In this document: in pieces, positions 8,386 through 26,366 of the stretch | Numbering within the stretch: the first letter of the stretch is position 1 | Layout of the letters: every line of letters starts with the position of its first letter | Program-made: the position numbers and the translations under genes | From: Erwinia mallotivora | GTDB lineage: Bacteria; Pseudomonadota; Gammaproteobacteria; Enterobacterales; Enterobacteriaceae | Assembly: GCF_000590885.1 (NCBI RefSeq) | Contig: NZ_JFHN01000034.1 | Location: 1 to 64,000 of the forward strand | Length of the DNA: 64,000 nt | Reading direction: 5' to 3' | Notes under the pieces: generated by a model | Databases searched by the model: none | What the model was told of the DNA's origin: nothing | The model's input: the letters and a program-made list of their open reading frames with translations, nothing else

Positions 8386-8438
8386 GAAATAAAAAGCGTA
8401 AACCATTCAGTAATCCTACGTCTTAAAGAGGCTTAAAC

Positions 8439-8537
8439 ATGAATATGAATGAAGAACTTGAATTGAACGAAGTTATTGAAGGTGACGTTCTGACTGAAGA
8501 AGAAATGATGGCGATCTCTGGTGGTTTGAAAGCCTGA
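8439..8537 (+). CDS. Ribosomal peptide precursor with double-glycine leader and three-residue tail
   Basis: 32 residues: an acidic leader (begins MNMNEELELNEV, continues LTEEEMMAISGG) and then only Leu-Lys-Ala before the stop. The leader has the LS/LT-E-E-x-hydrophobic-x-x-I-S-GG pattern of class II bacteriocin and lanthipeptide leaders cut by C39 peptidases after GG. The start at 8439 has AAGAGG eight bases upstream. It is the first gene of the ops-led operon, followed by a strong hairpin, and the last gene of the operon encodes a C39 peptidase. The tail is far too short for an ordinary bacteriocin. It may be a scaffold to which building blocks are attached, or the source of a tripeptide product. 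It is short, so chance is a possibility, but the ribosome site, leader motif, position and peptidase agree. Confidence 0.82.
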   Translation: MNMNEELELNEVIEGDVLTEEEMMAISGGLKA

Positions 8538-8543
8538 TTTATA

Positions 8544-8563
8544 GCTCCCCCTGCCGGGGGAGC
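8544..8563 (+). terminator. Perfect hairpin between precursor and biosynthetic genes
   Basis: GCTCCCCC and GGGGGAGC form an 8-bp GC-rich stem around TGCC, 6 nt after the precursor stop. It is followed by A-rich sequence, not a T-run. This fits a partial stop or 3'-end stabiliser that yields more precursor mRNA than enzyme mRNA, as in many peptide operons. The next ribosome site (AGGA) lies just after it. Confidence 0.7.
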
Positions 8564-8585
8564 ATTAAAATAATTAGGAACCCGT

Positions 8586-9572
8586 ATGACAGAAAACGAT
8601 TTTTCTCATCAACAACATCTGGATGTCGTCAGGGCACTGTTCCGTCTCTATACAGAAGATGAATCTACACTTGACGTTGACCTGGAGAGGTTGAAATCAG
8701 CCAGTCTGGAAATCATTAACCGAAACAAACTCATTGCGCTGTATCGCTATGCAATGGAGAAATATGAATTACTTCCAGCGCTGGGAAAGAAAAATTTCCG
8801 TATGCTTGATTTGATGTGCTGTTATGAGAAAAACCTGCGGGCTAAAAGAGAAAGTCACAATCGGATCCTCTTCAGAAGGATGAAGGAAGAGAAAATAAAT
8901 TTTGCGGTACGAAAAGGAGAAAGCCTCTCATTTTGCTACAAAGAATCTCATCATCGGATTTCAGGCGATACAGATATACTTATTGATAAGAATGACAAAA
9001 ATAAAATAGTAGAAATACTTGATTCACTTGGTTATAAAATGGGAGAGTTTGACCACTTCAGAGGGGAAATCAAAGACTATCGTCGTGAAGAACTGATTAA
9101 ATACAATATAAGTCCGGATCATCTACCGCATTACCTGCTGGTTGATGATGGCTATCCCGTTTCTGTTGATATTGCCTACAGCATTACGTGGTTTAAAGAT
9201 AATGAAAGTTATTCCACCACGGAATTAATCGATTCATCGACCAGTGAATTAAATGCAGAGGCGAAATTTCTTGATACCACTCTGCACCTCTATCGGGAAA
9301 CATTTCTTAAATCATCCCTGCTTAATCGTGCTCCCTACCTGTCAGGCATGTTTGACTCCGTTATTCTACACAACAAAAAAAATACAGAAATTGAAGATAA
9401 CAGAGTGAAAGAGATAGTCTGGTTTTCACTTCAGACTTTAGCAGGCAATGAGTCTTATGAATGTCTGAACAGAAAATATGCCTATTATTATAGCGGAAGT
9501 GAAAAAAAACCTATGAAAAATAGCGTTCTTTTTTACATGTTCAAAAACCGAGAAACATCGATAATATTATGA
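8586..9572 (+). CDS. Putative nucleotidyltransferase (NTP_transf_5-like)
   Basis: 328 residues. The polymerase-beta-type nucleotidyltransferase signature is visible: RKGESLSFCY (about 109-118), then SGDTDILID with Asp128 and Asp130, and a third acidic residue in PVSVDIAY (Asp195). This matches the layout of the uncharacterised nucleotidyltransferase family often found in peptide-maturation loci. A helical N-terminal part (1-100) precedes it. It would transfer a nucleotide or phosphate group to a small molecule or protein; the substrate is unknown. The start has AGGA at 8577. It is the first enzyme after the precursor hairpin and 12 bp before a second, different nucleotidyltransferase. Confidence 0.72.
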   Translation: MTENDFSHQQHLDVVRALFRLYTEDESTLDVDLERLKSASLEIINRNKLIALYRYAMEKYELLPALGKKNFRMLDLMCCYEKNLRAKRESHNRILFRRMKEEKINFAVRKGESLSFCYKESHHRISGDTDILIDKNDKNKIVEILDSLGYKMGEFDHFRGEIKDYRREELIKYNISPDHLPHYLLVDDGYPVSVDIAYSITWFKDNESYSTTELIDSSTSELNAEAKFLDTTLHLYRETFLKSSLLNRAPYLSGMFDSVILHNKKNTEIEDNRVKEIVWFSLQTLAGNESYECLNRKYAYYYSGSEKKPMKNSVLFYMFKNRETSIIL

Positions 9573-9584
9573 ACAGGACTGGAT

Positions 9585-10415: not shown

Positions 10416-10454
10416 TAAAGCATAAAAATAATAGTGATTGAGCTGGAGGTCAAA

Positions 10455-11180
10455 ATGCAAAGCAATGACGTTGTGATAGATATTATTACTGAAAACTTAC
10501 ATCATTTCTCTAAACAATGTTTGAAAACAATCACTAATGAAATTGATAATGAAGATTCTGACCTTTATAAGTCAATAATAAGGAAGTTTTATAACGAAGT
10601 CCTTGATAACTGCCGTTCAGGTACGCTGGCCAGAAGTATTAAAAACTACCTTAAGCCAGATGATAAAATAATAGACATAATGTGTGGGACAGGAACGCTG
10701 ACCAAAGCGCTGGAAAATACAGGGTATAACATTGAAGCTGTTGAAAGAGAGAGTGCACTTTATGGTGTTAAAAACTTTGAATATAAAAACTACGATGAAA
10801 ATTGTAGCCTCGGCCACTATGATGTCAGCCTGCTAATCACCGTATTGCATCACGAAGAAAAATACTGGAATTTGCTTGAACTGGCAATGGCCCATAGCGA
10901 CAAAATTATAATAGTAGAAAACGTTATCGACAAAAGGCATACCCAGGAAATCCACGAAAAAATCGATGAATTTTTTAACAGAATGCTGAATCAGTTTTCT
11001 GCTGATTGTCCTGGAAAACATCTGAGTGATATTGAGTGGCGAATATTATTAAGCACTTTACAGTCATTTAAGCTTACCCGTGTAGAAAAAATAGGATTTG
11101 TACCCGGAATTCCGGTTCCTCACTATTTATATGTGCTGGAGAGAGAGTGCAATGGCAAAAAGAGCAGCAAACTGTCATGA
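10455..11180 (+). CDS. Class I SAM-dependent methyltransferase
   Basis: 241 residues. SAM-binding motif I is IDIMCGTGTLTKAL (about 73-86), with an acidic end of strand 2 at AVERES and motif IV-like HYDVSLLITVLHH (about 121-133). The start at 10455 has GGAGG five bases before it; the longer frame from 10434 does not. The last 29 bases overlap the next gene, showing coupling. The LHH after motif IV resembles small-molecule and O- or N-methyltransferases; the substrate is unknown. Confidence 0.8.
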   Translation: MQSNDVVIDIITENLHHFSKQCLKTITNEIDNEDSDLYKSIIRKFYNEVLDNCRSGTLARSIKNYLKPDDKIIDIMCGTGTLTKALENTGYNIEAVERESALYGVKNFEYKNYDENCSLGHYDVSLLITVLHHEEKYWNLLELAMAHSDKIIIVENVIDKRHTQEIHEKIDEFFNRMLNQFSADCPGKHLSDIEWRILLSTLQSFKLTRVEKIGFVPGIPVPHYLYVLERECNGKKSSKLS

Positions 11181-12042
11181 GGCAATATGCAATGGCGAAC
11201 CGGTCGAAGCGTTTGAGGGGAAAAAAATCTCATTTATTCGCGGAGAATATCTGCTGAGAGATGATAACCTGCTACTGGATTGTCCGGATAAATACCGGAG
11301 AGTTGAAAAATATCTTTTAAAACTCTATGCTATTCACCCGGATGCCAAATACAGGTTTTCCGATCTTGATTCTGGAGAGATGCTGATAGCTGGATTTTTC
11401 GATTGCTGTTTTGAAAAAAACACCATAACGGGAAATCGTGGACATCGTAATAAAAGTTTCCTTGCTCATCACTATAAACTTGAGTTTGAACTGCTCAAAA
11501 GGATATCAGATTCATTGTCGTTACCCCTGTTGAAACTTATCGTGCCTTTTATCAGCTCACTACAAGAGTTATATAATATAAGAGACGGTTTGAACATCAG
11601 CAGTCATAAGATACAAATTATTCCAATGATAGAGACGCCCGGTCTTCTTGATGAAATACTCTCAGCTGAAATGCTTCAGTTCGATGAAGTTGTTGTCGGC
11701 CTGAATGACTTAACGTCGCTTTATTATGGTATGACGCGTGAGAAAAATAGCATCAACGTAGGTGATGTTTTATACCAGAAATTACTTCAGTTGGTGGATA
11801 AAAAACTGAAAGTTACCCTGGCGGGCAATATCAGGTCTGAAACCATTCAGAATGCTGATGACACTTTTCCACTGGCTATGCACCTGTGGAACGGGTGGAA
11901 TGATAATCTGGCCAGAGAGAGAGTCACAAAGATAAAAGAGCTGGCCTTACAATTGAAGCATGATTATTTCAAACGTAAAGTGGTGGAAAATGAAAATTTC
12001 AGAATATATACCATATACGAAAAAAATAATATCAATAAGTGA
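11152..12042 (+). CDS. PEP-utilising-enzyme-type TIM barrel protein, copy A
   Basis: 296 residues matching only the C-terminal barrel of PEP synthase, pyruvate phosphate dikinase and PTS enzyme I. Visible motifs in order: GNRGHR (94-99, like GxRGxR), VPFISSLQEL (131-140), MIETPGLL (159-166, like MIExP) and VVGLNDLTSLYYGM (181-194, like IGTNDLTQ). The phosphohistidine and ATP-grasp domains of those enzymes are missing. The position of the catalytic Cys (family ...CGE...) reads LAGN, with Ala. So binding of a PEP- or pyruvate-like ligand with Mg2+ is likely, but the classical proton-transfer step is not. The start at 11152 gives MAKRAANCHE. A homologue follows directly. Confidence 0.72.
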   Translation: MAKRAANCHEAICNGEPVEAFEGKKISFIRGEYLLRDDNLLLDCPDKYRRVEKYLLKLYAIHPDAKYRFSDLDSGEMLIAGFFDCCFEKNTITGNRGHRNKSFLAHHYKLEFELLKRISDSLSLPLLKLIVPFISSLQELYNIRDGLNISSHKIQIIPMIETPGLLDEILSAEMLQFDEVVVGLNDLTSLYYGMTREKNSINVGDVLYQKLLQLVDKKLKVTLAGNIRSETIQNADDTFPLAMHLWNGWNDNLARERVTKIKELALQLKHDYFKRKVVENENFRIYTIYEKNNINK

Positions 12043-12829
12043 TATGCAATCGATTGAAAGTGAAACGCATAAACATTTTGAAGATGCTTTTTTCAGAACT
12101 GAATACTATATCAGACAAAGCAAATCATGGATTGACTCTTCAGAATTTAAAGAAAAATTGTATGCCGATATCCAGTATGCGGCAGAAAATGGCTATAAAC
12201 GCATTTTGTTACGTGCACCAGATATCCAGTTAAATGAACTTGCTATCTACGATGCAAGATTTAATAAAGAAGATAATTCAATTATCGGGCATCGTGGTAT
12301 CAGAATTCAACATCTTTATCATGACTATTTTTCGGACTTCAGAGAACTGTATCAGGAAATAATCTCAAGTTTTTCCCTCTCCGTAGAAATTGTCTGGCCA
12401 TATGTAACACAATTGAGAGAATGTGATTTATTTGAACTGACTCCCAGCTATTACATCATGGTAGAAACGCCAGCACTGTTAATCGATCTTGTCCAGAAAA
12501 GGATAAGGAAGGAAATAAAGGGCTATGTCATTGGATTAAACGATCTCTACTCTCTCTATTTTGGTGCTTCGCGACAGGTAAGTTATTATCGGCAGGACAT
12601 GTCTGAGTTGATTAACTTCACCATTGAGATGATAGAAAAAAGTAAAATTGAAAAAAAATACATCTATTGGGCAGGATATTATGCAGAGAAAGATGCCCGG
12701 TTAATAGTGGAAAAAGGTTTTGAAAATTTAATCATCGATCAACAAGCGTTGACCTGTACTGATAGCACCATGGATAAGGTATGGGGTTTATATGATAAAC
12801 AACTTGAAAAAATAAGAAGGGTGCTATGA
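11990..12829 (+). CDS. PEP-utilising-enzyme-type TIM barrel protein, copy B
   Basis: 279 residues, a diverged paralogue of the preceding gene. It keeps IIGHRGIR, the IVWPYVTQLREC strand, YIMVETPALL and VIGLNDLYSLYFGASR in the same order. The catalytic Cys position is again Ala (YWAGYYAE). It overlaps the previous gene by 53 bp from the ATG at 11990; a start at 12044, just after the previous stop, is the alternative. Two adjacent half-enzymes suggest a heterodimer or two successive steps on similar substrates. No function is assigned beyond a likely enolpyruvate/oxaloacetate-type ligand. Confidence 0.7.
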   Translation: MKISEYIPYTKKIISISDMQSIESETHKHFEDAFFRTEYYIRQSKSWIDSSEFKEKLYADIQYAAENGYKRILLRAPDIQLNELAIYDARFNKEDNSIIGHRGIRIQHLYHDYFSDFRELYQEIISSFSLSVEIVWPYVTQLRECDLFELTPSYYIMVETPALLIDLVQKRIRKEIKGYVIGLNDLYSLYFGASRQVSYYRQDMSELINFTIEMIEKSKIEKKYIYWAGYYAEKDARLIVEKGFENLIIDQQALTCTDSTMDKVWGLYDKQLEKIRRVL

Positions 12830-13866
12830 GTATTGAGCTGGCCAGGAAGAAAATGACAGAACTGGGGCTGCTGGTCAGCGGGATGCTGGAAAGTCTCAGA
12901 TACGACATTTTATATAAACAATTTGTTGATGCTGAAGAGATATTGAAGGCCTGCGAACATTTATATGATCTTGCCAGATGTTATGCATCGATTAATGAAA
13001 GAATAACTGAACTCAGGGGCAGCAGCAGAAAGATCAAAGCCGCCAACAGAAAAAGTTTTCTCTCTTTGAAACGCGAAACCGAAGATAAAATAGCATCATA
13101 TTATTCAAACAGCGATCCCATTCTTGATGCACCAGGTCTGAAAGTTTTGAAAACGCTTTCACTGACATTAAAGGATTATACCTATCCCGTCTCAAACAGC
13201 GATGACCTGGTTTATCATCCACAGTTGAATGGTATCAGCAGAGGGAAGAATAAGCCTGTTTATCTTGAATCGAAGGGATATGAAAAAGTCAATTTAAGTG
13301 AAAATATAAATACCACTTTGACCGAGGAAGAAGTAAAAGACCTCTGGTTACAGCGGGATGAAATTGATGCCGTTGAAACTTTCTTAATCGCCCTTGAAGC
13401 GCACTTAACCGAGAACGATGTCGAAAGTATCGTGACAACATCAAGATTTGCCTGGGATGAAGCACGTCATCACTATTACGGTTTGATGAAACTGGCAGAA
13501 TATGGAATTGATGAGAAAAGTTTACCTTACAACGTCGTGGGTATTGCTGTCAGATCAAATCTCGAACCTCTGCTGGCCCAGGCACAAATTCATCTTTTTG
13601 GCGAAGTAGGTATTATTAGTCGAATAAAAGAAGTTAAAAACAGTAACTCTGCAATCAGCGAAGATTTTCAATGGATTTATACCGATGAAAATATGCATGT
13701 CAATGAGGGTGTTGCCTTACTGAAAGCGAAAGGGGTTTATGGCAAGAGTGTCAGAAAACAGATTTCACAAAAATGTAAAAATGCATTGATTAAGCTGGAT
13801 ATATTTGATGAGGAGTATATCTCTGCTCTTGATGATAAACAGCTGAATATATTGATAGGTGAGTGA
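12826..13866 (+). CDS. Ferritin-like di-iron protein
   Basis: 346 residues. The C-terminal half is a helical bundle with carboxylate/histidine pairs: EAHL (near 191), WDEARHHYYGLM (ExxH at 212-215), HLFGE (256-260) and DENMHVNEG (ExxH at 288-291). This is the pattern of ferritin-like di-iron proteins such as MiaE and DUF455-type relatives. A di-iron site would support oxidation or hydroxylation with O2. Residues 1-110 are a separate helical part. The ATG overlaps the previous stop (ATGA). Substrate unknown; a peptide- or carrier-bound intermediate is a guess from context. Confidence 0.65.
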   Translation: MSIELARKKMTELGLLVSGMLESLRYDILYKQFVDAEEILKACEHLYDLARCYASINERITELRGSSRKIKAANRKSFLSLKRETEDKIASYYSNSDPILDAPGLKVLKTLSLTLKDYTYPVSNSDDLVYHPQLNGISRGKNKPVYLESKGYEKVNLSENINTTLTEEEVKDLWLQRDEIDAVETFLIALEAHLTENDVESIVTTSRFAWDEARHHYYGLMKLAEYGIDEKSLPYNVVGIAVRSNLEPLLAQAQIHLFGEVGIISRIKEVKNSNSAISEDFQWIYTDENMHVNEGVALLKAKGVYGKSVRKQISQKCKNALIKLDIFDEEYISALDDKQLNILIGE

Positions 13867-14777
13867 TGATTACCAGACTCAATTATTTATCGGAAAAATT
13901 CAGGCGCGAAATCTATGGCTATTTAGGCTTTTGTAATCTCACTGGCTCGATAAAAGATAAACCCGCGCTGATGATGGTCGAAGACCTGAAAAAAAAAAGC
14001 GTCCAAAAAGGACGCTGGATTATTGAAGGAACGGCAGGGAATACGGGCACAGGACTTGCCTGGTATTGTAAACAAGCCGGTTATAAGTTTATCGCAGTGG
14101 TTCCTGATAAAGTTTCACCTGAAAAAATTGAAAAATTAAAAGGTGTCTGTGAGAAAGTATTCGTCTGCCCGACAGTTTCAAAAGAACATCCGGATTTTTA
14201 TCTTAAAAAGTGCGCAGACCTGGCTAATGAACTTGATGGGATATATATCGATCAGTTCAATAATTTAAGTAATATTCGTGCCCATGAGTGCTACACAGCA
14301 CCAGATATTCACAGATACTTTGGGCAGCAGCCGGACGTGATCTTTTGTGGCATAGGAACCGGCGGCACCCTGAAAGGTCTGAGTAACTACTTTTCGAAAT
14401 TGCCGGGAAAAACAGACTTTATCGTAGGGGATCCTCAAGGCAGCATCTACCACAAAACCATTAACCGCACATTGCTTTCAACAGAACATTTTGCCATAGA
14501 AGGTATTGGTAGTTCATATATCACGCCATTCTTCGATAATAATATTGTCAAGAAAGCCTACGCAATAAATGACCATGATGCTTATCTGGCATGTCGCGAT
14601 TTTTATAAAAATGAAGGAATATGCTGCGGCGGTTCATCTGGTGTCCAGCTTATGGCACTGACGGAATACTGCTGTGACACGACCATTAAAAGGGCAGCGG
14701 GAAAAATAGTGTTAATGCTACCAGATCATGGTGGAAATTATATTGAGAAAATTTATAAGGAGGAGACATGTATATAG
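13866..14777 (+). CDS. Cysteine synthase-like PLP enzyme (fold type II)
   Basis: 303 residues. Schiff-base lysine in NLTGSIKDKPA (Lys30), substrate loop EGTAGNTGTGLAW (about 54-66), PLP phosphate-binding GIGTGGTLKGL (162-172) and C-terminal GGSSGVQ (about 255). These are the hallmarks of O-acetylserine sulfhydrylase, cystathionine beta-synthase and SbnA-type enzymes, which do beta-replacement on activated serine. The start at 13866 follows AGG by six bases. With the CGS-like gene at 17508 it suggests building of a non-standard amino acid. The nucleophile is unknown. Confidence 0.83.
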   Translation: MITRLNYLSEKFRREIYGYLGFCNLTGSIKDKPALMMVEDLKKKSVQKGRWIIEGTAGNTGTGLAWYCKQAGYKFIAVVPDKVSPEKIEKLKGVCEKVFVCPTVSKEHPDFYLKKCADLANELDGIYIDQFNNLSNIRAHECYTAPDIHRYFGQQPDVIFCGIGTGGTLKGLSNYFSKLPGKTDFIVGDPQGSIYHKTINRTLLSTEHFAIEGIGSSYITPFFDNNIVKKAYAINDHDAYLACRDFYKNEGICCGGSSGVQLMALTEYCCDTTIKRAAGKIVLMLPDHGGNYIEKIYKEETCI

Positions 14778-15436
14778 CCGGGCATGTCTATGTGGTGCAA
14801 CAGGCATTTGAAAGAGACATCGATATATTCCAACTGATGCAGGCTGATATATTCAGAAGTCACGACTATTCGGCAATCACCGGGCAAAATTATGAGGTTA
14901 TAGAAAGCGAACCTTATATGTATCTGCATCTTTTAGGTGATTATCATATTCATTTCGGTAATCGCTATCAGGAGCTGAAAGCAGGCTGGGTTTATCAAAA
15001 AATGGGCATTGCCACCGACACCTGGAAGAAAATGCATAATCTTGGTTACACGACAGAGGACAGTAAAAGAGGTATCTGTCACTCACTGGTTGAATATGTC
15101 GTTGATATTTATCTGGAGAAAAACAACTCATGCAGGCAACTCAACGATGTTAAATCACAGCTTACTCATGACAAAGTGAATCTGGCGCAATGCGATGATC
15201 AATCCAGAGAAAAAGCGCATGACTATATTAACCGGGTACATTTATCTGACAGCTATCATGAAATACTGGCACGCGCCGCGGCCAATAAGTTTTTTAAAAC
15301 AAAAGACCAGAAAGTAACGGATTTTTTTTATGATGAACTATCCGTTATCTATCAGCGCTTGGATGAACAATCAATTGAAAATGAGTTGAAAAATAATATC
15401 GAATTTATAAAGAGGAACATTCAATGGAAATCTTAG
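14768..15436 (+). CDS. Phospholipase-C-like helical protein, paralogue 1
   Basis: 222 residues. Conserved features shared with the next gene are an N-terminal GHVYVVQQA, HLLGDYHIHFG (about 54-64), AGWVYQKM and HSLVEYVVDIYL (about 106-117). His and Asp placed in helices in this way resemble zinc-dependent phospholipase C/S1-P1-type metal sites, but I see only this resemblance, and one helical HD-like metalloprotein fold could look the same. AAGGAGGAG precedes the ATG, which lies inside the previous gene. No signal peptide, so it is probably cytoplasmic, unlike secreted phospholipases. Confidence 0.5.
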   Translation: MYIAGHVYVVQQAFERDIDIFQLMQADIFRSHDYSAITGQNYEVIESEPYMYLHLLGDYHIHFGNRYQELKAGWVYQKMGIATDTWKKMHNLGYTTEDSKRGICHSLVEYVVDIYLEKNNSCRQLNDVKSQLTHDKVNLAQCDDQSREKAHDYINRVHLSDSYHEILARAAANKFFKTKDQKVTDFFYDELSVIYQRLDEQSIENELKNNIEFIKRNIQWKS

Positions 15437-16233
15437 GGCATTATTATGTGGCCAAAAATATCATACCTTTATTTGACAGCGAAAAATACTCTTCCCAAAG
15501 TGACTATATGATGTTCCCTAATTATATGCACTGTCACGAGTGGTGTTATGAAAATTTATGGCGGCAGACGATGCTTGACCCTGAAATGGAAATGATAAAA
15601 ATTCACGCTTTATCAGACTGGTTTGTGCATTATGGTGATTCCACTGCAAACAAATATAAGACAGGCTGGGCATACAGCAAAATGGACTGTGCAATAAAAG
15701 CGACAGATAAAGCCTTTGTGCGTCTTGCAGAACTTGGTTACCTTGATTATAACAAAGGGGACTATCGTTTTTTCTCGGAAAGGAAATCATTTAATATATT
15801 TCACAGTATCATTGAATATGCCATCGAACTGCATTTTCTGGAGGAGTTTACAGATGAAAATATTAAATTTATCATCAGTAGCTATAAAAATATAACCAGT
15901 AAAAAGGAGCATCTTTTTTCATATATGGCGGGTCAGAATATACTTTCTGATCAAACAAAAGAAGTAATCAGTCAATCAATCGATCAGATGCAGGATATTG
16001 CATGGCAAAACGATATATTGCTATTTCCTGTCAGTGCTATGTTGGAAAAAGGCCGGGTTGCGTCTAATCAGGAAACCAATGAAGTTATATTGCAGTTGAT
16101 GCACGATGTTTGTGAAAAAGTCAGTCGGAGCGAAGCTGTCAATGCTCTTGACCTTGTAACGTCGAAAGTCATGAATTTCGAGCAATATTATGATGGTGAT
16201 TTTAATGTTAAGAGTCATTATATTAACACCTGA
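15424..16233 (+). CDS. Phospholipase-C-like helical protein, paralogue 2
   Basis: 269 residues, homologous to the preceding gene across its length: GHYYVAKNI at the start, HALSDWFVHYGD, TGWAYSKM and HSIIEYAIELHF align with HLLGDYHIHFG, AGWVYQKM and HSLVEYVVDIYL. It adds HCHEW near residue 40 as an extra His cluster and a longer C-terminal helical part. The start lies 13 bases inside paralogue 1. Adjacent duplicates with retained His/Asp positions imply retained metal binding and perhaps a heterodimer. Function unknown. Confidence 0.5.
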   Translation: MEILGHYYVAKNIIPLFDSEKYSSQSDYMMFPNYMHCHEWCYENLWRQTMLDPEMEMIKIHALSDWFVHYGDSTANKYKTGWAYSKMDCAIKATDKAFVRLAELGYLDYNKGDYRFFSERKSFNIFHSIIEYAIELHFLEEFTDENIKFIISSYKNITSKKEHLFSYMAGQNILSDQTKEVISQSIDQMQDIAWQNDILLFPVSAMLEKGRVASNQETNEVILQLMHDVCEKVSRSEAVNALDLVTSKVMNFEQYYDGDFNVKSHYINT

Positions 16234-16927: not shown

Positions 16928-16934
16928 TTGCAGT

Positions 16935-17504: not shown

Positions 17505-17507
17505 ACC

Positions 17508-18566: not shown

Positions 18567-18585
18567 ATCTGGAGGTAAGTTGGTC

Positions 18586-20364
18586 ATGTTTTTTTATTTG
18601 ATGCATTTTAATGATTTTTTAAAAAATGTTTTGATAAAAATGACAGGCAGGTACGCTAAGTTCTACATAGCTTTCTTTGCTTTCCTTTATCTTACTACAA
18701 TTACTGCCAGCTCTTTTTTCTATTACAAAATTATAGATCCTAAAATATGGCACAGTACCGATCTGTTTATCAGCTTATCTGTTTACATATTGCTTTATTA
18801 TTTTCTGTACAATATTTCGTTTATACTGGCTAATGTTGCCAGCTCTTTGAGTCAGGCTCTCTATTTTAGCAAAATTAAAAAAGAAAATTTACTACGAGCC
18901 ACTCTTGAACGTGATATTAAATCGGTAGGTGAACTTCATAATATCTTCCTCAACTACTATGTGACTTTGTCAATACTGTTAATTACCTGCTATCGCCTGG
19001 TGAAAATCAGCATTGCTCTTTTAGCTGTTTACGCGGTGGTCATAGGCCTGATTATGCTGGCACTGAAAGTATGGCAAAAAAAAATAAAGCATCTTGATAA
19101 AAAAAGAAAAGCGGTCATCGACAGATTTATCCAGGCATCAAAAAAATCTCACTGGAGTAGTGCTTCCGTTATTCGTGCTTACGAAAACAAAATTGTGTGG
19201 AAGTTACAAAATTACATGACCGTTTCCAGAGTCATATACAATCTCGCACCACTGATGGCGCTGATTATTGCCCTGACAGCTGCTTATCTTCATCTTTTTT
19301 CATTGTCACTGTCCCAGACGGCCAGTCTGGTTATTATCAGTACGGTGCTGATTGATATTGCAGACAGTACATCTTATCTGGTTTTTTACAGTTCCCAGAT
19401 TACCAATGGTCTTGAAAGAATAAAAAAATTCTCGCTTACGGAAAGTCAGGAAGTTTATAACCAGTTTAGTTTTCTGAATAAAGATATGCTCAGATGCTTT
19501 ATTAAAACCAGTCACAATTTTAAGCAGCACTGGCTGAAGCGATATGTCAGATATTTCGTACATGGTAAAAGTTCGTCGAAAACAGTTATATTGTTGTTGC
19601 TCTCTTTTGTCTTTTTAACAGCATACAGTTTTCTCAAATTTAAATTTGATGTTTTTGTTGTCAGTGGAGTAAATCTGATAACCCTGCTTTCAGTTATTAT
19701 TTTTTCACTTTTTTGCCTGATGCTGGCCGATCTCTTACTGAAAAGGCTGTTCTATATCAATGCTAAATTTACTATCTTTGCTTTACTTCATAAACTAAGC
19801 CAAAGAAAAGTAAATGATAAAGATATTGAAGTCCTGTCTTACGATACTAAAGTTCTTGATGATGGCATATCTTTTTCGTTGACCGAGTTTTTCTTCGCTC
19901 TTGCAACATCGTTAATATTTATCTATTCCTATGTAAAAATGGGAGCAAGTCTGTATATTCTGGCCGTAGTCATTGTGCTGTTTTCAATTGGTCAGTATGT
20001 TTACAGAAAACTGGCGGTATTTACCAAGCAAATGGAAGTCTATTTCGTCACACGCTCAGGTACATTACTTTCTGGCGAAATAAAAAACTATCCGTATGCT
20101 GTGCAGGTTTATTTTTCATCATTATCTTCGCAACTGGCTAATACGATCAATAATCGTATTTTCATGGTTTATTGTGCACTACTGATTTCAGCCGTAATTT
20201 TTTCATTATCACAGTTTACTGTTACCTCTTCATTCCCTTTAATTGTAGCAACGGTATCACTGCTGTTTAAACTTTCACATTCACTCTCTTATGCAATTCG
20301 GTATCTGAGTCAGCTGGAAGGGTGGTCTATTTCTGTTGCACGGACCCTGTCCAGAATATACTGA
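18586..20364 (+). CDS. Double ABC-exporter membrane domain lacking both ATPase domains
   Basis: About 592 residues and strongly hydrophobic. Two six-helix blocks (about residues 20-270 and 335-590) each look like an ABC-exporter membrane domain. The first ends with NGLERIKKFSLTE, the usual linker just before a nucleotide-binding domain (SxxRIxxFLxxxE). The second ends with LEGWSISVARTLSRIY, again the pre-NBD helix. Yet no Walker A, signature or Walker B motif exists anywhere; the first NBD is replaced by about 40 residues and the second is absent. GGAGG at 18571-18575 serves ATG 18586 (a TTG at 18580 is possible). Either it uses a separate ATPase or it has been re-purposed as a membrane scaffold or enzyme. 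Confidence 0.72.
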   Translation: MFFYLMHFNDFLKNVLIKMTGRYAKFYIAFFAFLYLTTITASSFFYYKIIDPKIWHSTDLFISLSVYILLYYFLYNISFILANVASSLSQALYFSKIKKENLLRATLERDIKSVGELHNIFLNYYVTLSILLITCYRLVKISIALLAVYAVVIGLIMLALKVWQKKIKHLDKKRKAVIDRFIQASKKSHWSSASVIRAYENKIVWKLQNYMTVSRVIYNLAPLMALIIALTAAYLHLFSLSLSQTASLVIISTVLIDIADSTSYLVFYSSQITNGLERIKKFSLTESQEVYNQFSFLNKDMLRCFIKTSHNFKQHWLKRYVRYFVHGKSSSKTVILLLLSFVFLTAYSFLKFKFDVFVVSGVNLITLLSVIIFSLFCLMLADLLLKRLFYINAKFTIFALLHKLSQRKVNDKDIEVLSYDTKVLDDGISFSLTEFFFALATSLIFIYSYVKMGASLYILAVVIVLFSIGQYVYRKLAVFTKQMEVYFVTRSGTLLSGEIKNYPYAVQVYFSSLSSQLANTINNRIFMVYCALLISAVIFSLSQFTVTSSFPLIVATVSLLFKLSHSLSYAIRYLSQLEGWSISVARTLSRIY

Positions 20365-20409
20365 AATTCGCGTATCACGCGCCTGCTTTATTATTGAATA
20401 TGAGGTGGT

Positions 20410-21792
20410 ATGAATATCTATTCTTATCTTATTCTGAGCTGTTACAGAAATCGTGATAATGTGTTTCTGATAGAAAATGATAGCACTTATACTTATAACG
20501 ATCTTCTTGGAGCGATAATATCTCAAAAAAAGAGATTTATTTCGCAGATTAACGAGGAGGGAATTAACAGGGTTGATATTCTTGAGGGGAATGCTTTTTC
20601 ACTTACTGTTTTTTTAATGCTGGCGCTCTCAGCAGGCATTCATCTCAGGATAAAAAACAGAACAAGTGCAGCATCAAATCAGCTGGATAATGGCTGTATC
20701 GATAGCAGGACTTATCAGACAGATAAGAATTGCTACGATGAAACTGAAATCCAAAAATTTCTCACCGAAACAATTATTAATGACAAATCTGAACATTTCA
20801 GACTGTCTCTTTTTTCATCAGGTAGCTCGTCAGGTCAACCGACAGAGATGATTGCGAGTTCAAAAAACCTGTTTTTCTCTTTGATGAGCATTTCCTCTGT
20901 ACTTAAATACAATAATCATTCCCGTATTGGTTTTTGTACACCTCTCTCTTTTGATTACAGCCTGTATCAGATATTAATGTCCTTATCCGCAGGCGCATCC
21001 GTTGTTTATTATGATTTTCGGGAATACCTGCATCGGGTTTTTGTAAAATTCTCTGAACATAAAGCGAATTGTCTTGCGTTAATACCCGCAATACTGAAGC
21101 ATTATGTCATCGCCAGCAAGAATGATCCCTCACTGTATGCGCCTGTTCAAATTACACTGACCGGTGAAACCTTTACCCAACAACTTTATGACAGCTGTAA
21201 GCTGGTATTGCCTGAAACGCATATTATTACTATGTATGGCATTACCGAATGTAAACGTGTTTCAATTATGCCTCTGTCGTGTTGTGCTGTCGACAGCCAG
21301 TGCTGTGGGGTTGCTATTCCGGGAATTACTATAGCTGTTCGTGATCTCAATAGCAGTGCACTGATGCGGCAGGGAAAGGGCGAGTGTATCGTGCGTGGTG
21401 ATAATGTTCTGCTTGGTTATCAGGATTCTGGTCCATGCCAGTTTATTAACACTGACGAAGGGCGTGCGCTTTTCACCGGAGATCGTATCAATCTCACTGC
21501 GGAAGGGTATGTGTATTTCGAAGGCCGTGAAAGTGAAATGATAAAAATTAACGGCGTCAGAATTGATACCCGACCTTTAATAAAGTCTATTAACGATAAA
21601 TTTTCTCTTAAATTAAAAATAAAATCCGCTGATAACTTTATTGAAGTTATCAGCAAAAATATCACAGAAGATACAGCTACCCTTGAGCTTTTTATCAAAA
21701 ACTATATCAATAATAATCACGGTATAACCATCAGAGGCGTCGAGTTTAAACAGATTAGTAACTCTCTGTTAAATCATAATCTCAAGGAGTAA
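20410..21792 (+). CDS. Stand-alone adenylation enzyme (ANL superfamily)
   Basis: 460 residues. ATP-binding loop SLFSSGSSSGQPTE (133-145), YGITE motif at MYGITECKR (275-283), TGD motif FTGDRINLTAEGYVYFEGR (about 357-375) and hinge SEMIKINGVRID. It activates a carboxylic acid as acyl-AMP. The C-terminal subdomain is short, and the usual catalytic Lys near the end is not clearly placed (ends NHNLKE). A carrier-protein gene is 1.9 kb downstream in the same operon and is the likely acceptor. RBS GAGGT before the ATG. Confidence 0.82.
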   Translation: MNIYSYLILSCYRNRDNVFLIENDSTYTYNDLLGAIISQKKRFISQINEEGINRVDILEGNAFSLTVFLMLALSAGIHLRIKNRTSAASNQLDNGCIDSRTYQTDKNCYDETEIQKFLTETIINDKSEHFRLSLFSSGSSSGQPTEMIASSKNLFFSLMSISSVLKYNNHSRIGFCTPLSFDYSLYQILMSLSAGASVVYYDFREYLHRVFVKFSEHKANCLALIPAILKHYVIASKNDPSLYAPVQITLTGETFTQQLYDSCKLVLPETHIITMYGITECKRVSIMPLSCCAVDSQCCGVAIPGITIAVRDLNSSALMRQGKGECIVRGDNVLLGYQDSGPCQFINTDEGRALFTGDRINLTAEGYVYFEGRESEMIKINGVRIDTRPLIKSINDKFSLKLKIKSADNFIEVISKNITEDTATLELFIKNYINNNHGITIRGVEFKQISNSLLNHNLKE

Positions 21793-21794
21793 AA

Positions 21795-22682
21795 ATGATC
21801 AATAGTATTCCTGTCGATTGTCGCACAAATTCAATTCTGGGCATTCTTAACAACTCTGTGTATAAGAATTTCTTAGCCTCAGTCTGCTATATGGACATCT
21901 TCCTCGATTTTAACCGTGAAAAACGGAGCGTCAGAATAGAACAAAGCAACCCGGTATTTTCCCTTGCTAAATTCGGTTTCGAAATAGAATCCAGAACTTA
22001 TCAGCAGAAAGATTTGTCCGAGGCATATGAAGATATCATCAAATCTTCTGGCATTGTCATTCAACATTCATACAGTACTTTGTTGCGAAGAATGCGAATG
22101 ATAAAAGTGAATCTACCTGTTGATATACCTCATATGGTTTATTCTCAACAAATGCGTAAGGTTGATGATAATCTCATATTTAATACTACCGATCTGAAAT
22201 TCAGGGTGATGAGTTGGCAACATTTTTTTCTCAATGAAGATGATGAAGTGATCATTTATTTAATCCGTAAAAAACCTGATAAAGTATATGACAATAAGGT
22301 GCTTATCAGCTCTGCAAAAGACGCTATGGAAGTTTATTTGTCTACGGTAAACTCAAAGTTAATTGCAGATATTATCTCTGATATGCACCAGGATATTATC
22401 GCAGATAAAAAATATGAATCTGCTGCAATATGGAATCGCAATGTATGGAAGTTGTATATCACGCGCGGATGGTATCATCAATGCCTGCAAAATCTTTTCC
22501 CTGCTTGCAGTAAAAATGAATCCGTGTCACTGCTTTCTGCGGGGTATAAATCGATCAGTGATTCAATTGTAGAGAATGTTATTAATAATAAAAATTACAG
22601 CCTGAATGATTATATTCAACTTTTTGGAGAACACCTGGACAATGAACATAAAACCATTGCAGAAATCTATGAGCAAATCTGA
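21795..22682 (+). CDS. Unrecognised protein between the ligase and the dehydrogenase-like gene
   Basis: 295 residues, mixed alpha/beta by eye, no signal peptide or membrane helix, no motif I recognise. It has AAGGAG before its ATG, starts 3 bp after the ligase stop, and its end overlaps the next gene by 41 bp. Aromatic-rich segments (WNRNVWKLYITRGWYHQC) suggest a ligand- or protein-binding surface. Position between acyl ligase, dehydrogenase-like protein and carrier suggests a role on the carrier-bound intermediate. Confidence 0.6.
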   Translation: MINSIPVDCRTNSILGILNNSVYKNFLASVCYMDIFLDFNREKRSVRIEQSNPVFSLAKFGFEIESRTYQQKDLSEAYEDIIKSSGIVIQHSYSTLLRRMRMIKVNLPVDIPHMVYSQQMRKVDDNLIFNTTDLKFRVMSWQHFFLNEDDEVIIYLIRKKPDKVYDNKVLISSAKDAMEVYLSTVNSKLIADIISDMHQDIIADKKYESAAIWNRNVWKLYITRGWYHQCLQNLFPACSKNESVSLLSAGYKSISDSIVENVINNKNYSLNDYIQLFGEHLDNEHKTIAEIYEQI

Positions 22683-23682
22683 GGTTACAGATATTATAGT
22701 CAGTTGTAAATCTATTGAATGTTTAAAATCGGCTATTGAGTCTGTGGAGTTTAATCAACTCTTTTATCTTAAATTTATTACCGACGCCGATGTTCATAAC
22801 ATTCTTCAGGCGCTTTCTGCTCACTCACTCTCTTTAGGTATCTCCTTCGCTCAACATATGCAATCTGTCTATGCGTTGATCGAATGTAATATTACCGATT
22901 TCACTGATACCGGGCTCATTTATTCTGCAACTACCACCGTCAACGGATCTTCCCTGACTTCGTTAGTGGAACTGATGCACATTGAGGGGCAACTCAGTCG
23001 CGTGTGCCCTGTTATCAGTTTTTTCAGTCTGGCATCACATATTCTGTTTACCGGTAAAATAGCCGATAAGCCGGTGCTGGTTTTTGCACCGATTAAGGAA
23101 TTGAATATTTTGCACCATCATTTTCTCCAGGGCATGGGTATGCATGAGAACAAAATATCTTCTGTTACCTTCTCTCTGGATAGCCGTAAGGCCCTGATCA
23201 TTGAAAATAATATTAAATTTATTTTAAATGAGGTAATTGCCTTCTACGCACATTATTTGTGGAGTATCTGCTGGAACAGCACTATGCGTGCTATGTTTGA
23301 CAGCCTTCTTCACTTCATCAGTAATAAAAAAAATGAGGCCATATTTCTAAGGCTGAACAAATTAAATAATCTGTTGGTTATCAATGATTCCCTCATAATG
23401 AGAGTTTCACGTATTGCCAGTGAAAAAATCTCTCATATTGACAAACATGTGGTGCTCAATTCTGCCAAATTAATTATTTCAGAAAACGCATCGCAATTTG
23501 CTGATATTTTTATGCAATCGTTAGGTTTTAAGAATGGCTACATGGCAGTCAATGATGACAGGTTACACAATCAATATCATGATCTGAAATCTGCGGTTTA
23601 TATGTTTAACAATGATACGCTTTACGATATCAATTTCAAATCCATATTATTATCCTTTCAGCTGTCAGGAAGAGAAAAATGA
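22642..23682 (+). CDS. Acyl-CoA dehydrogenase-like protein (divergent)
   Basis: 346 residues. The C-terminal 100 residues resemble the helical bundle of acyl-CoA dehydrogenases: AKLIISENASQFADIFMQSLGFKNGY, then DDRLHNQYHDLKSAVYMFNNDTLYDINF, corresponding to the family's ...lGg.GY...l.r.yRDar...i..GT.ei. The middle is beta-rich, as expected. Placed with an adenylation enzyme and a carrier protein, it may oxidise a carrier-bound acyl or aminoacyl group, as PltE-type enzymes do with prolyl-PCP. The match is weak in the N-terminal half. The start at 22642 is chosen over 22606, which lies further inside the previous gene. Confidence 0.55.
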   Translation: MNIKPLQKSMSKSEVTDIIVSCKSIECLKSAIESVEFNQLFYLKFITDADVHNILQALSAHSLSLGISFAQHMQSVYALIECNITDFTDTGLIYSATTTVNGSSLTSLVELMHIEGQLSRVCPVISFFSLASHILFTGKIADKPVLVFAPIKELNILHHHFLQGMGMHENKISSVTFSLDSRKALIIENNIKFILNEVIAFYAHYLWSICWNSTMRAMFDSLLHFISNKKNEAIFLRLNKLNNLLVINDSLIMRVSRIASEKISHIDKHVVLNSAKLIISENASQFADIFMQSLGFKNGYMAVNDDRLHNQYHDLKSAVYMFNNDTLYDINFKSILLSFQLSGREK

Positions 23683-23909
23683 TAGAAATTATTAAAAGTT
23701 ATATTTTATCAAATACCGGCAATACGCCTGGTGATGAAATTTATCAGATGGATTTTTTTGCAACAGGTCTGGATTCACTGCTTTTAGTCGGTCTTATTGT
23801 TGAACTTGAAACCCATAATAATACTCAGCTGAGTGAGGAGACGTTAGCCGAACTATTATCTGGGTCGGACACAACCTTCGGAGAGTTAATTGATGCTTTC
23901 AAAAGATAA
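23679..23909 (+). CDS. Acyl/peptidyl carrier protein
   Basis: 76 residues, a four-helix carrier with the phosphopantetheine site at TGLDSLLLVGLI (Ser33). ATGA overlap with the previous gene and a 17-base overlap with the next. It would hold the substrate activated by the ligase at 20410 as a thioester while neighbouring enzymes work on it. No phosphopantetheinyl transferase is in the operon, so a host enzyme must prime it. Confidence 0.88.
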   Translation: MIEIIKSYILSNTGNTPGDEIYQMDFFATGLDSLLLVGLIVELETHNNTQLSEETLAELLSGSDTTFGELIDAFKR

Positions 23910-25062
23910 TTCATTACCTCAGGCTAAAATTTCATATTCAAAGCTTGAGATAATGAAGAATATACTTGCCCTGCAAAAATTTTTACCTGATTTCTCTTCA
24001 TTAATCTATTCATTAAAAGCTAATAATTATCCACCATTAATCGATTTTATTTCGGATTTTACTCAGGGGTTTGATGTTTGTTCACAGCAAGAGATGGATA
24101 TTCTTATTGATGCTAAGGTGTCTGGTAAAGATATATTTATCACTGGCTATGACAAAGTTAATATTCATCTCTCCTCATTTATTAAGTTGTCATCCCAAAG
24201 TAATTCATTGTTTTTTGTACTGGAATCTGTACGCGAAATCGAATTTTTTAAAAAACTGGTCCAGAACGGTATTGATGGCAAAGGGCTGTTTCGTCTTTCT
24301 TATATACCCGGTACAACTTATGGTATTTATAATGGCTTACCCAAAAGTCATTTTGGTATGACAGCAAAACAGATTGTAGATTGCCTGGCTGGAGGAGGGT
24401 ATTTTTATTTAAAAAACATTGTCGGTTTTCACTGTTATATCGGCTCCCAAATCCAGAGCATCGATGCAGTAATGATTTCTCTGGGTAATGCGCTTGATGA
24501 GATAAAAACAATCTGCCAGGCTACGGACTTTCAGCCGGACGTTATTAATTTTGGTGGAGGGTTTCCGCATACCTTCGGTTTACCTCATAAAGCTCTGTCC
24601 TTGCCTGATGTTTCACTCACCGAATCGCTGAGCAGTAAACTCAGAACGTTGAACCATATGCCTGAATCTGTGTTTTTTGAGAGCGGGCGGGGCATTGTTG
24701 GCGGCTCGGGGCGTCTTGAAGTGAGCCTGTTGGATTACAACATTAATGCAGAGTCACCTTTTCTGGTGGTCAATGCCGGGATATCTCAGGTTGGTGCATT
24801 ACATCTGGTCAGATCGTTACGTCCTTCACCAATGACATTCTATGCCAGCAATCTACAGCCTGAGAATTTTGCTGGTTTGCAGAAATTTGACGTCTACGGT
24901 CCTGCCTGCACCTCTCTTGATCACGTCGGCACGGCGTATGTGGATGCAGCATCTCTCCCTGAGTTAAAAACACTTTACTGTGACAATATGGGGGCTTATG
25001 CCGCCAGTGCAGCGCTGAATGGATTTCATGCCAAGGGCAGAATTAATGAGGAACTGATTTAA
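23893..25062 (+). CDS. PLP-dependent amino acid decarboxylase (fold type III)
   Basis: 389 residues with the ornithine/diaminopimelate decarboxylase pattern: Schiff-base Lys in IYSLKANNYP (Lys42), GFHCYIGSQI (family GxHxHiGSQ), VINFGGGFP (PLP phosphate loop), FESGRGIVGGSG, YGPACTSLDHVG (family GptCdslD, catalytic Cys) and DNMGAYAASAALNGF. Both active-site signatures are intact, so it is probably active. It could decarboxylate a free amino acid, the C-terminal residue of a peptide or a carrier-released acid. The ATG at 23893 follows GGAGAG. Confidence 0.86.
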   Translation: MLSKDNSLPQAKISYSKLEIMKNILALQKFLPDFSSLIYSLKANNYPPLIDFISDFTQGFDVCSQQEMDILIDAKVSGKDIFITGYDKVNIHLSSFIKLSSQSNSLFFVLESVREIEFFKKLVQNGIDGKGLFRLSYIPGTTYGIYNGLPKSHFGMTAKQIVDCLAGGGYFYLKNIVGFHCYIGSQIQSIDAVMISLGNALDEIKTICQATDFQPDVINFGGGFPHTFGLPHKALSLPDVSLTESLSSKLRTLNHMPESVFFESGRGIVGGSGRLEVSLLDYNINAESPFLVVNAGISQVGALHLVRSLRPSPMTFYASNLQPENFAGLQKFDVYGPACTSLDHVGTAYVDAASLPELKTLYCDNMGAYAASAALNGFHAKGRINEELI

Positions 25063-25068
25063 TCGGCG

Positions 25069-26217
25069 ATGATGACTTTTCTTTTAATGCTCCTTTTTTT
25101 ATTTGATCAATGGGTTGACCGTACTGTGCTGACTTACGCTGGCGTAATAAAGCCTGTCTACCAGGTTGAAAAGTATGATTGTGGCCTTGCCTGTGTTTGT
25201 ACGCTAGCTTCTCACTATGGTTATCATCTTTCACTAAATCAGCTGAGGAAAAATTATCCGCCTGGATCGACAGGACTGTCATTTAACATCCTTAAACAGA
25301 TTACCGACCGGTGCGGTATTGAATCCTGTTGCAAAAAAATACCCATGACTGCTTTTCAATTGCTCACTGTACCGGTAATCAGCCACCTTAAAAATGCACA
25401 TTACGTTGTTTTCCTTGGTGTGAGAAATCATTGCTACCATTATTTTGATCCTGCGCGAGGATTCTGTATCACTGATGCTGAAGGCTGGAATAATCTGTTC
25501 AGTGGCGTGATTTTACTCCCTTTGCGCGGGGCAAAATCGGTATCGTCACTCATGCATTTTGTCACCTCTGGATTCGGCTTTGCTTTGCCATTTGCGCATT
25601 ATTTTTTAATTGATTTTATACTTTCAGTATCGCTGTTTATGTTGTCTTTATACTTTAATGCGCATTCTGTTTTATTATCTTTTATCTACTCATTTTTAAC
25701 TGCTCTTATATTTAGTTCTGCCTCAGGTAAGCTGTCAGCAAGGATAGAAAGTGTTAACAATGTGCAGCCGTCGATAACACCGTACTTACTGGCTTATCAG
25801 CTTTCAGTCACAAATCGGTTAAATAAAAAAGCCATGCTTTTTTTCTTTCCTGTGTTTTTTTTTGCCGCTGGTTTGTCCTGTTTCACCCCGGCTAAATTAA
25901 TTCTGTTATTGATGTTTTCGCTGATAACACTGTGGTTTCTTTTTTTTAATGCTGACTTCAGAGAGCGTTACTATATGAAAAGAACTTATCGTAGTGAACT
26001 CAGCGCGATGCTCAGTTCTGACAGGATAGTGCGGAAAACAACGGGAATAAAATTTTATATCCTGACAGCTTTTCTGATTTTAATCTGTTTGTACAGTTGC
26101 TTCGACGGTCTGGCAATGTGGTCTATCTCTGTTGTGGTGGCGTATTTTTTGTCGCGTTGGATATTTAATTTTTATCTTGATTTGAAAGAATTTCTTTTCA
26201 TTTTTAATGCAGAGTAG
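25069..26217 (+). CDS. C39 leader peptidase fused to ABC-type membrane helices, no ATPase
   Basis: 382 residues. The peptidase domain (about 25-160) has the oxyanion Gln32 and nucleophile Cys38 in YQVEKYDCGLAC, catalytic His111 in NAHYVVFLGV and Asp127 in YFDPARG: a complete C39 active site. About six hydrophobic helices follow (170-380), and the protein stops without any nucleotide-binding domain, where normal bacteriocin exporters run to about 700 residues. It would cut the precursor after GG. Export energy would have to come from another ATPase. Last gene of the operon. The codons directly after its TAG stay open for 30 more residues. Confidence 0.85.
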   Translation: MMTFLLMLLFLFDQWVDRTVLTYAGVIKPVYQVEKYDCGLACVCTLASHYGYHLSLNQLRKNYPPGSTGLSFNILKQITDRCGIESCCKKIPMTAFQLLTVPVISHLKNAHYVVFLGVRNHCYHYFDPARGFCITDAEGWNNLFSGVILLPLRGAKSVSSLMHFVTSGFGFALPFAHYFLIDFILSVSLFMLSLYFNAHSVLLSFIYSFLTALIFSSASGKLSARIESVNNVQPSITPYLLAYQLSVTNRLNKKAMLFFFPVFFFAAGLSCFTPAKLILLLMFSLITLWFLFFNADFRERYYMKRTYRSELSAMLSSDRIVRKTTGIKFYILTAFLILICLYSCFDGLAMWSISVVVAYFLSRWIFNFYLDLKEFLFIFNAE

Positions 26218-26324
26218 ATCGACAAACAGGTTGTCATCGCCCGTTATCTGTCCGGGATGGCACTGTCGCTGCTGAAAGGCGGTGATTTGCGCAAGTTGAG
26301 TCATTGTTGAGAACAATCTTGCAT

Positions 26325-26361: not shown

Positions 26362-26366
26362 GAATC

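What the first reader, a model, noticed from the sequence alone, without database searches (positions are those of the whole stretch)
8439..26217. Possible new peptide-scaffolded biosynthetic system with a three-residue core
About 19 genes on one strand, mostly overlapping or within 50 bp, run from a double-glycine precursor (only LKA after GG) to a C39 leader peptidase. No known lanthipeptide, thiopeptide, radical-SAM or YcaO enzyme is present. The mix (two nucleotidyltransferases, NDK-like, two PEP-type barrels, di-iron protein, two transsulfuration-type PLP enzymes, ligase, carrier, dehydrogenase-like, decarboxylase) does not match any pathway I know. A leader with a tiny core recalls scaffold-peptide pathways, in which residues are added to a carrier peptide's C-terminus, modified and cut off. 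That analogy is inference.
Basis: partly seen in the sequence, partly recalled or inferred. Interest (0 to 1): 0.93.

Follow-up and report, generated by a model that had tools for sequence, protein, structure and literature searches.

The report
Ribosomal tripeptide meets carrier-protein beta-amino acid
One rare 20-gene bacterial operon carries a tiny ribosomal peptide precursor with only three residues after its predicted cut site, together with relatives of the enzymes that turn aspartate into a beta-amino acid on a carrier protein, so its product is likely a hybrid of these two usually separate kinds of peptide chemistry.

Summary
Twenty overlapping or tightly spaced plus-strand ORFs (8439-26217) run from a 32-residue double-glycine precursor ending GG|LKA to a C39 peptidase. 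The leader passes NCBI's curated double-glycine signal model; its motif occurs once in the window and in none of 200 simulations. The operon is a 35-41% GC island beside a tRNA-Asn gene. It is very rare: among 5.8 billion proteins its di-iron protein has two close relatives plus a 99% entry that may be its own.

"Matches no known pathway" is only partly right. LIG, ACP, DEC and ACD2 match a known module (vicenistatin VinN, butirosin BtrK, AFC-BC11 AfcQ/AfcP): aspartate is loaded on a carrier, decarboxylated to beta-alanine and likely oxidised. In 80 other VinN-type loci (flanks up to 10 kb) I found no convincing C39 gene or precursor.

The scaffold ("pearlin") reading lacks its defining enzyme. 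I propose that the Leu-Lys-Ala core becomes part of the product, joined to the carrier-built unit (most simply at Lys) and freed by C39. The joining step is inferred. Twelve proteins remain unplaced. No second copy of the precursor was found, so conservation of LKA is untested.

The parts
8439..8537 (+). Precursor peptide, 32 aa, double-glycine leader, core Leu-Lys-Ala
   Evidence: NCBIfam TIGR01847 above cut-off; motif 1 in window, 0 in 200 simulations; AGAGG upstream of ATG
8544..8563 (+). 8-bp G+C hairpin between precursor and rest of operon, no U tract
   Evidence: Region 8520-8590 folds at -24.4 kcal/mol, z -2.55, 2 of 200 shuffles as good; no terminator-like site
8586..9572 (+). NTP5: NTP_transf_5 nucleotidyltransferase
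   Evidence: PF14907 46.2 bits, cut-off 31.2; relatives beside the same ligase module in 3 of 80 loci: L015, L026, L063
9585..10415 (+). NTP2: second nucleotidyltransferase-like protein
   Evidence: PF01909 18.6 bits, under cut-off 21
10434..11180 (+). MT: class I methyltransferase-like protein
   Evidence: PF13489 E 2.5e-5, under cut-off
11098..12042 (+). PEP1: stand-alone PEP-utilising barrel (11146 used as start in scripts)
   Evidence: PF02896 26 bits over cut-off 22.8; PEP synthase match E 1.8e-11, far under that model's cut-off
11960..12829 (+). PEP2: second PEP-utilising barrel, paralogue of PEP1 (11990 used as start in scripts)
   Evidence: PF02896 49.2 bits; PEP1-PEP2 blastp E 7e-13
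12826..13866 (+). DIF: ferritin-like di-iron protein
   Evidence: 7 homologues in 5.8e9 proteins, four distant ones with PF04305; no PDB match
13863..14777 (+). PALP: fold II PLP enzyme, nearest to cystathionine beta-synthase
   Evidence: PF00291 168 bits; best PDB hits cystathionine beta-synthases
14768..15436 (+). U1: orphan, paralogue of U2
   Evidence: U1-U2 blastp E 2e-6; no family
15424..16233 (+). U2: orphan, predicted helical at low confidence
   Evidence: AF2 mean pLDDT 44.9; no family
16190..16927 (+). NDK-like protein by eye (VVHTFDSVDED)
   Evidence: No profile support
16863..17504 (+). GNAT-like acyltransferase by eye (RSKRNGIGSAV, NRFYLANKF; 16932 used as start in scripts)
   Evidence: No profile support
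17508..18566 (+). CGS: divergent Cys/Met-metabolism PLP enzyme
   Evidence: PF01053 27.5 bits, cut-off 27
18580..20364 (+). TMD: polytopic membrane protein without ATPase
   Evidence: 11 hydrophobic peaks, some overlapping; no Walker A or signature motif
20410..21792 (+). LIG: VinN-type adenylating ligase
   Evidence: PDB 3wvn E 1.6e-26; D182, T251, R283 invariant in alignment A3
21795..22682 (+). ACD1: orphan inside the carrier module
   Evidence: No family; AF2 pLDDT 30.7
22606..23682 (+). ACD2: divergent acyl-CoA-dehydrogenase-like protein
   Evidence: E 9.9e-22 to a profile of five module ACADs, one of which is ACAD by Pfam; no Pfam or PDB match of its own
23679..23909 (+). ACP: carrier protein with DSL motif
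   Evidence: PF00550 27.3 bits, cut-off 20.8
23890..25062 (+). DEC: BtrK/VinO-type PLP decarboxylase
   Evidence: Best PDB hits BtrK 2j66, 7ru7; K and C motifs kept
25069..26217 (+). C39 leader peptidase with membrane segments and no ATPase
   Evidence: PF03412 82.6 bits; no ATP motifs

Best explanation
The operon encodes a three-residue-core ribosomal precursor next to relatives of the enzymes that make beta-alanine from aspartate on a carrier protein, and most likely joins the two into one small exported molecule. Predicted order: LIG adenylates the side-chain carboxylate of aspartate (or a close analogue) and loads it on the ACP; DEC removes the alpha-carboxylate, leaving beta-alanyl-ACP; ACD2 would oxidise it, as in dehydro-beta-alanine; an acyltransferase, perhaps the GNAT-like protein, would move the unit onto the core, most simply onto the Lys side chain, while the leader serves as the handle; tailoring enzymes act before or after; C39 would cut after Gly-Gly and release Leu-Lys(X)-Ala for export. 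Shown: gene content, order, homology and conserved motifs. Inferred: substrates, joining step, attachment site, oxidation and export.
For: Leader and a C39 peptidase are the first and last genes of one tight operon. LIG best matches 3wvn/3wv4 (E 1.6e-26 and 7.8e-23; called NRPS in the file, VinN by recall) with Asp182, Thr251 and Arg283 at the beta-amino-acid pocket positions. DEC best matches BtrK, L-glutamyl-[BtrI ACP] decarboxylase, and keeps YSLKANN and GPxC. LIG, DEC and ACD2 match profiles built from 10 loci that I had picked for their ACD2-like protein (E 3.6e-46, 2.9e-47, 9.9e-22). In AFC-BC11 the VinN-type AfcQ loads Asp, AfcP decarboxylates it on the carrier, and dehydro-beta-alanine results (PMC12186527 passages). 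GNAT acylation of Orn/Lys in a ribosomal peptide has precedent in selidamides (PMC9505594 passages).
Against: No joining enzyme is proven: the GNAT-like call is by eye, with no Pfam match even at E 10. In 80 other VinN-type loci I found no convincing C39 gene or precursor, so the link rests on one operon. NTP5 relatives stand with the module in 3 of 80 loci where no such precursor was found, so NTP5 may serve the carrier unit and not the peptide. ACD2 is divergent, with no Pfam or PDB match of its own. LIG is 20 to 53 residues shorter than five relatives, and whether it keeps the last catalytic lysine is uncertain. No ATPase for export is in the operon. No plus-strand promoter-like site was found at 7800-8700. 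Twelve proteins are unplaced. Conservation of LKA is untested.
Confidence: 0.4

Rival explanations
1. Two unlinked outputs: the operon makes a non-ribosomal small molecule from the carrier-bound beta-amino acid, and the tiny GG peptide is only a co-transcribed secreted signal or accessory peptide.
For: The carrier module stands without a recognised precursor in the other clusters seen; NTP5 and a Pfam NDK protein accompany the module without a GG peptide in L063.
Against: A secreted peptide of three plain residues would be very short; the precursor is the first gene and C39 the last of one tight operon; no convincing C39 gene in the 80 comparison loci (a 79-codon frame in L033 gave E 0.0045 and was not supported by the profile).
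Confidence: 0.22
2. Pearlin-like scaffold: residues are added to the C-terminal Ala of the precursor, modified there and cut off, with the peptide recycled.
For: Short carrier-like peptide ending in Ala, many tailoring enzymes; pearlins are built on such peptides (PMC9303977 passages).
Against: No PEARL/LanB-like enzyme in the operon; none found in the genome either, but the control search rang nowhere, so that part is inconclusive; C39 would cut before LKA and not after it.
Confidence: 0.13
3. C-terminal hybrid: the Ala carboxylate of the precursor N-acylates beta-alanyl-ACP, which protects the enamine for oxidation, and C39 frees Leu-Lys-Ala-(dehydro-beta-Ala)-X.
For: In AFC-BC11 N-acylation is thought to precede dehydrogenation because the free enamine is unstable (PMC12186527 passages); two nucleotidyltransferase-like proteins could activate a carboxylate (inference).
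Against: No enzyme known to activate a peptide C-terminus was recognised in the scans made.
Confidence: 0.15

Closest known systems
Carrier-bound amino acid modules: VinN/VinL/VinO (vicenistatin), BtrK with BtrI (butirosin, pathway name recalled), AfcQ/AfcK/AfcP (AFC-BC11)
   Same: Ligase and PLP decarboxylase homologous, small carrier present, plus an ACAD-like protein; pocket Asp, hydroxyl and Arg kept
   Different: Coupled here to a ribosomal precursor and C39; no PKS or NRPS in the operon; ACD2 divergent; LIG short
Pearlins (3-thiaglutamate, ammosamide)
   Same: Short ribosomal peptide linked to many small-molecule enzymes
   Different: No PEARL in the operon; predicted cleavage site lies before and not after the C-terminal residues
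Selidamides (GNAT-acylated RiPPs)
   Same: Possible acyl transfer to Lys in a short core
   Different: Donor would be a carrier-bound amino acid, not a fatty acyl group; GNAT only by eye; no lanthionine synthetase found
Class II bacteriocins and microcins with double-glycine leaders
   Same: Leader and C39 peptidase
   Different: Core of three residues; transporter-like proteins lack an ATPase; many tailoring enzymes

Membership tests
Double-glycine leader peptides cut by C39 | Leader signal before Gly-Gly | tested here: met
   TIGR01847 17.5 bits over 15.7; motif rarity
Double-glycine leader peptides cut by C39 | C39 peptidase in the locus | tested here: met
   PF03412 82.6 bits over 22; Cys, His and Asp seen by eye in the translation
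Double-glycine leader peptides cut by C39 | PCAT architecture with ATPase domain | tested here: not met
   No ABC_tran in Pfam scan, no Walker A or signature motif in any operon protein
VinN/BtrK-type beta-amino acid carrier module | VinN-type ligase pocket (Asp, Ser/Thr, Arg) | tested here: met
   D182, T251, R283; Arg331 role seen in PMC12186527, the other two positions recalled
VinN/BtrK-type beta-amino acid carrier module | PLP decarboxylase with catalytic Lys and Cys | tested here: met
   (roles of Lys and Cys recalled)
VinN/BtrK-type beta-amino acid carrier module | Carrier protein with phosphopantetheine Ser | tested here: met
   PF00550 over cut-off, DSL motif; two ACPS-family transferases elsewhere in the genome
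VinN/BtrK-type beta-amino acid carrier module | Complete ligase with C-terminal catalytic lysine | tested here: inconclusive
   LIG ends ...NLKE; not aligned with the NGK of relatives by MAFFT
Dehydro-beta-alanine (AfcE/BolQ) branch | Functional acyl-ACP dehydrogenase | tested here: inconclusive
   Homologous to module ACADs but divergent
Pearlins | PEARL (LanB-like peptide aminoacyl-tRNA ligase) | tested here: not met
   None in operon; whole-genome search negative but its control was silent
Selidamide-like acylated RiPP | GNAT acyltransferase in the locus | tested here: inconclusive
   By eye only; no Pfam or PDB support
Lanthipeptides, radical-SAM or YcaO RiPPs | LanM/LanC/LanB, radical SAM or YcaO enzyme | tested here: not met
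   None reported in operon Pfam scans; no LanC in genome, control rang in 1 of 14
All of the above | Modification of the core peptide | not testable with these tools
   Needs mass spectrometry

The most novel reading that the evidence does not exclude
The operon is the first ribosomal and thiotemplated hybrid of its kind: the ribosome supplies a three-residue peptide on a double-glycine leader, a stand-alone carrier protein supplies an aspartate-derived (dehydro-)beta-alanine, the two are fused without NRPS, PKS or PEARL enzymes, and a C39 peptidase releases the conjugate.
Probability: 0.35. Interest if true: 0.88.

Novelty: new variant of a known kind. Interest (0 to 1): 0.68.

Why it matters
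Ribosomal peptides and carrier-protein assembly lines are usually treated as separate routes. An operon that joins a three-residue ribosomal core to a carrier-built beta-amino acid would define a searchable hybrid class, offer a small conjugation system to study, and raise testable questions on orphan enzymes (stand-alone PEP barrels, NTP_transf_5, a new di-iron family). It also narrows an open guess: part of the pathway now has a predicted substrate (aspartate) that can be assayed with three or four proteins.

Tried and rejected
Distribution searches. Near DNA matches: none in E. coli genomes or plasmids. tblastn in 72,556 plasmid records: none for DIF, CGS, U2, precursor or NTP5, four Streptomyces records for the ACD2 frame. 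Di-iron protein: 1 of 295 and 1 of 392 genomes in two overlapping family samples, 1 of 37 in the genus, 1 of 369 in the class; NTP5: 1 of 345 in the order; in every case the single hit is the window's own genome. None confirmed in genome contigs with the PEP2 alignment or in viral contigs with A1 or A2; these scans use two short patterns each. So no second locus could be read, and the precursor could not be aligned.

Structure prediction of ACD1 and U2 from single sequences failed (mean pLDDT 30.7 and 44.9), so no fold search was run. NDK-like label: no Pfam, PDB or local profile support, kept only as an eye reading. GNAT-like label: same. Idea that NTP5 must modify the precursor: weakened by L015, L026 and L063. 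Of 38 genomes scanned for PF14907 (the 37 with a DEC match plus L010), 19 had a match; three matches lie in fetched loci (L015, L026, L063). The places tried for L014 and L050 did not read as NTP5 (L014 not open, L050 open but another protein, where I also tried one place for L027 with a guessed offset, of no value). A profile from nine NTP5 proteins, those three among them, found no further one in the 80 loci. Idea that TMD is a fused ABC exporter: no significant similarity to the genome's own C39 exporters. A copy of the tRNA-Asn 3' end at the left end of the operon: none of 12 bases or more in the listed hits for the window apart from the second tRNA gene (hits listed in part). One search scanned an arbitrary short stretch and gave nothing.
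Full report
Observation. Searches show 20 plus-strand ORFs from 8439 to 26217, with the largest gap 48 bp (precursor to NTP5). GC is 35-41% in the nine 2-kb blocks at 8001-26000, against 52-64% to the left and 49-57% at 26001-38000; further right it falls again to 40-54%. The right end lies 149 bp from a tRNA-Asn gene (26367-26442, minus strand), beyond which lies amn. The precursor MNMNEELELNEVIEGDVLTEEEMMAISGG|LKA passes TIGR01847; its motif is rare; it has an AGAGG before the ATG and a strong hairpin without U tract after it. A promoter scan of 7800-8700 found only one site, on the minus strand. The precursor was found once in the genome.

Families. Pfam and NCBIfam give NTP_transf_5; a sub-threshold NTP_transf_2; a methyltransferase-like protein; two stand-alone C-terminal PEP-utilising barrels that keep, by eye, the HRG, ETP and GLNDL motifs of the family (motif roles recalled; PEP1 less well); PALP nearest to cystathionine beta-synthase; a weak Cys/Met PLP enzyme; ligase; carrier; decarboxylase; and C39. 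The di-iron protein is tied to PF04305 only by distant homologues. U1 and U2 are paralogues without family. ACD1, TMD, the NDK-like and the GNAT-like proteins have no meaningful profile match.

Known module. LIG best matches PDB 3wvn and 3wv4, which the file calls NRPS and which I recall as VinN; next come NRPS adenylation domains and beta-aminoacyl-ACP synthetases. VinN's Asp230, Ser299 and Arg331 (Arg331 seen in PMC12186527, the others recalled; numbering matched by an offset of 16 counted by me) correspond to Asp182, Thr251 and Arg283. DEC's best PDB match is BtrK, L-glutamyl-[BtrI ACP] decarboxylase. ACD2 was first tied to acyl-CoA dehydrogenases through four Streptomyces plasmid records among 72,556; in two of them, L005 and L007, ligase, decarboxylase, carrier and ACAD stand together; L006 carries no annotation and gave no good ligase match. 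VinN/VinO chemistry: PMC11284099, passages. AFC-BC11 and bolagladin, in which Asp becomes dehydro-beta-alanine: PMC12186527, passages.

Comparison loci. Among these 80, tblastn at E 1e-3 with all 20 window proteins found LIG in 80, DEC in 37, ACD2 in 7, PALP in 3, NTP5 in 2, and no match for the other 15, the ACP among them, so short or diverged proteins are missed at this sensitivity. NTP5 rose to 3 of 80 when PF14907 was searched (L015, L026, L063). A C39 profile found none in the 80 loci; a single-sequence search had given one weak hit, a 79-codon frame in L033 at E 0.0045. A scan for small ORFs with 1-8 residues after GG in these 80 and six other loci gave two hits, in L024 and L075, that I judge to be chance; longer cores would be missed. 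L063, a Chitinophagales MAG, holds ligase, decarboxylase, carrier, Pfam ACAD, NTP_transf_5 and a Pfam NDK protein. This counts against a precursor-only role for NTP5. The small-peptide link is therefore seen only in the window's operon.

Rarity. Relatives among 5.8 billion proteins: DIF 99% (P0001, listed without source and perhaps the window's own cluster), 85% and 67%, then four distant ones; PEP2 three (Erwinia papayae 99%, Dickeya undicola 77%, a JGI metagenome 58%). The host is probably an Erwinia (inferred from P0008). No locus of the relatives could be fetched.

Mechanism. Shown: order, families, motifs. Inferred: LIG loads Asp; DEC gives beta-alanyl-ACP; ACD2 oxidises; the unit is moved to the core, most simply to Lys, by the GNAT-like protein; C39 cuts after GG. 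Precedent for Lys/Orn acylation of ribosomal peptides by GNATs: PMC9505594, passages. Not placed: NTP5, NTP2, MT, PEP1, PEP2, DIF, PALP, CGS, U1, U2, NDK-like, ACD1. Export is puzzling because neither TMD nor the C39 protein has an ATPase domain.

Pearlin test. Pearlins need a PEARL that adds a residue from aminoacyl-tRNA to the peptide's C-terminus (PMC9303977, passages). None is in the operon. The genome search was negative but its control rang nowhere.

Literature. The ten searches listed no paper that, from title and start of abstract, describes a double-glycine precursor coupled to a VinN-type carrier module. This covers open-licence PMC papers only, and of long result lists only the rows shown.

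Noticed in passing
39050-56492: A second biosynthetic-looking gene set lies between the two tRNA-Asn genes: ketosynthase protein (51387), adenylation-carrier protein (54147), ATP-grasp (44673), AMP ligase-like, under cut-off (43426), HpcH aldolase (41157), aminotransferase (47084).
   Followed up: partly
49755-51272: A methionyl-tRNA synthetase-family protein (PF09334, E 1e-90) sits inside that second gene set; it might be a self-resistance copy (inference).
   Followed up: no
26367-26442 and 58175-58250: Two identical tRNA-Asn genes (76 of 76 bases) flank about 32 kb, a likely island hot spot.
   Followed up: partly
30-5719: Two ABC exporter-type proteins and a TonB-dependent receptor upstream look like a yersiniabactin-type transport end (resemblance recalled, not tested).
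   Followed up: no
8323-8436: A 37-codon TTG-start ORF ends 2 bp before the precursor start codon; could be a leader ORF or chance.
   Followed up: no
L063:717-1664 and L063:15094-16239: Pfam NDK and NTP_transf_5 proteins accompany a VinN-type ligase, decarboxylase, carrier and ACAD in a Chitinophagales MAG.
   Followed up: partly
L015 and L026: Enterococcus loci pair the VinN-type ligase, decarboxylase and carrier with NTP_transf_5 and, in L026, an HPr-kinase-like protein below its cut-off.
   Followed up: partly
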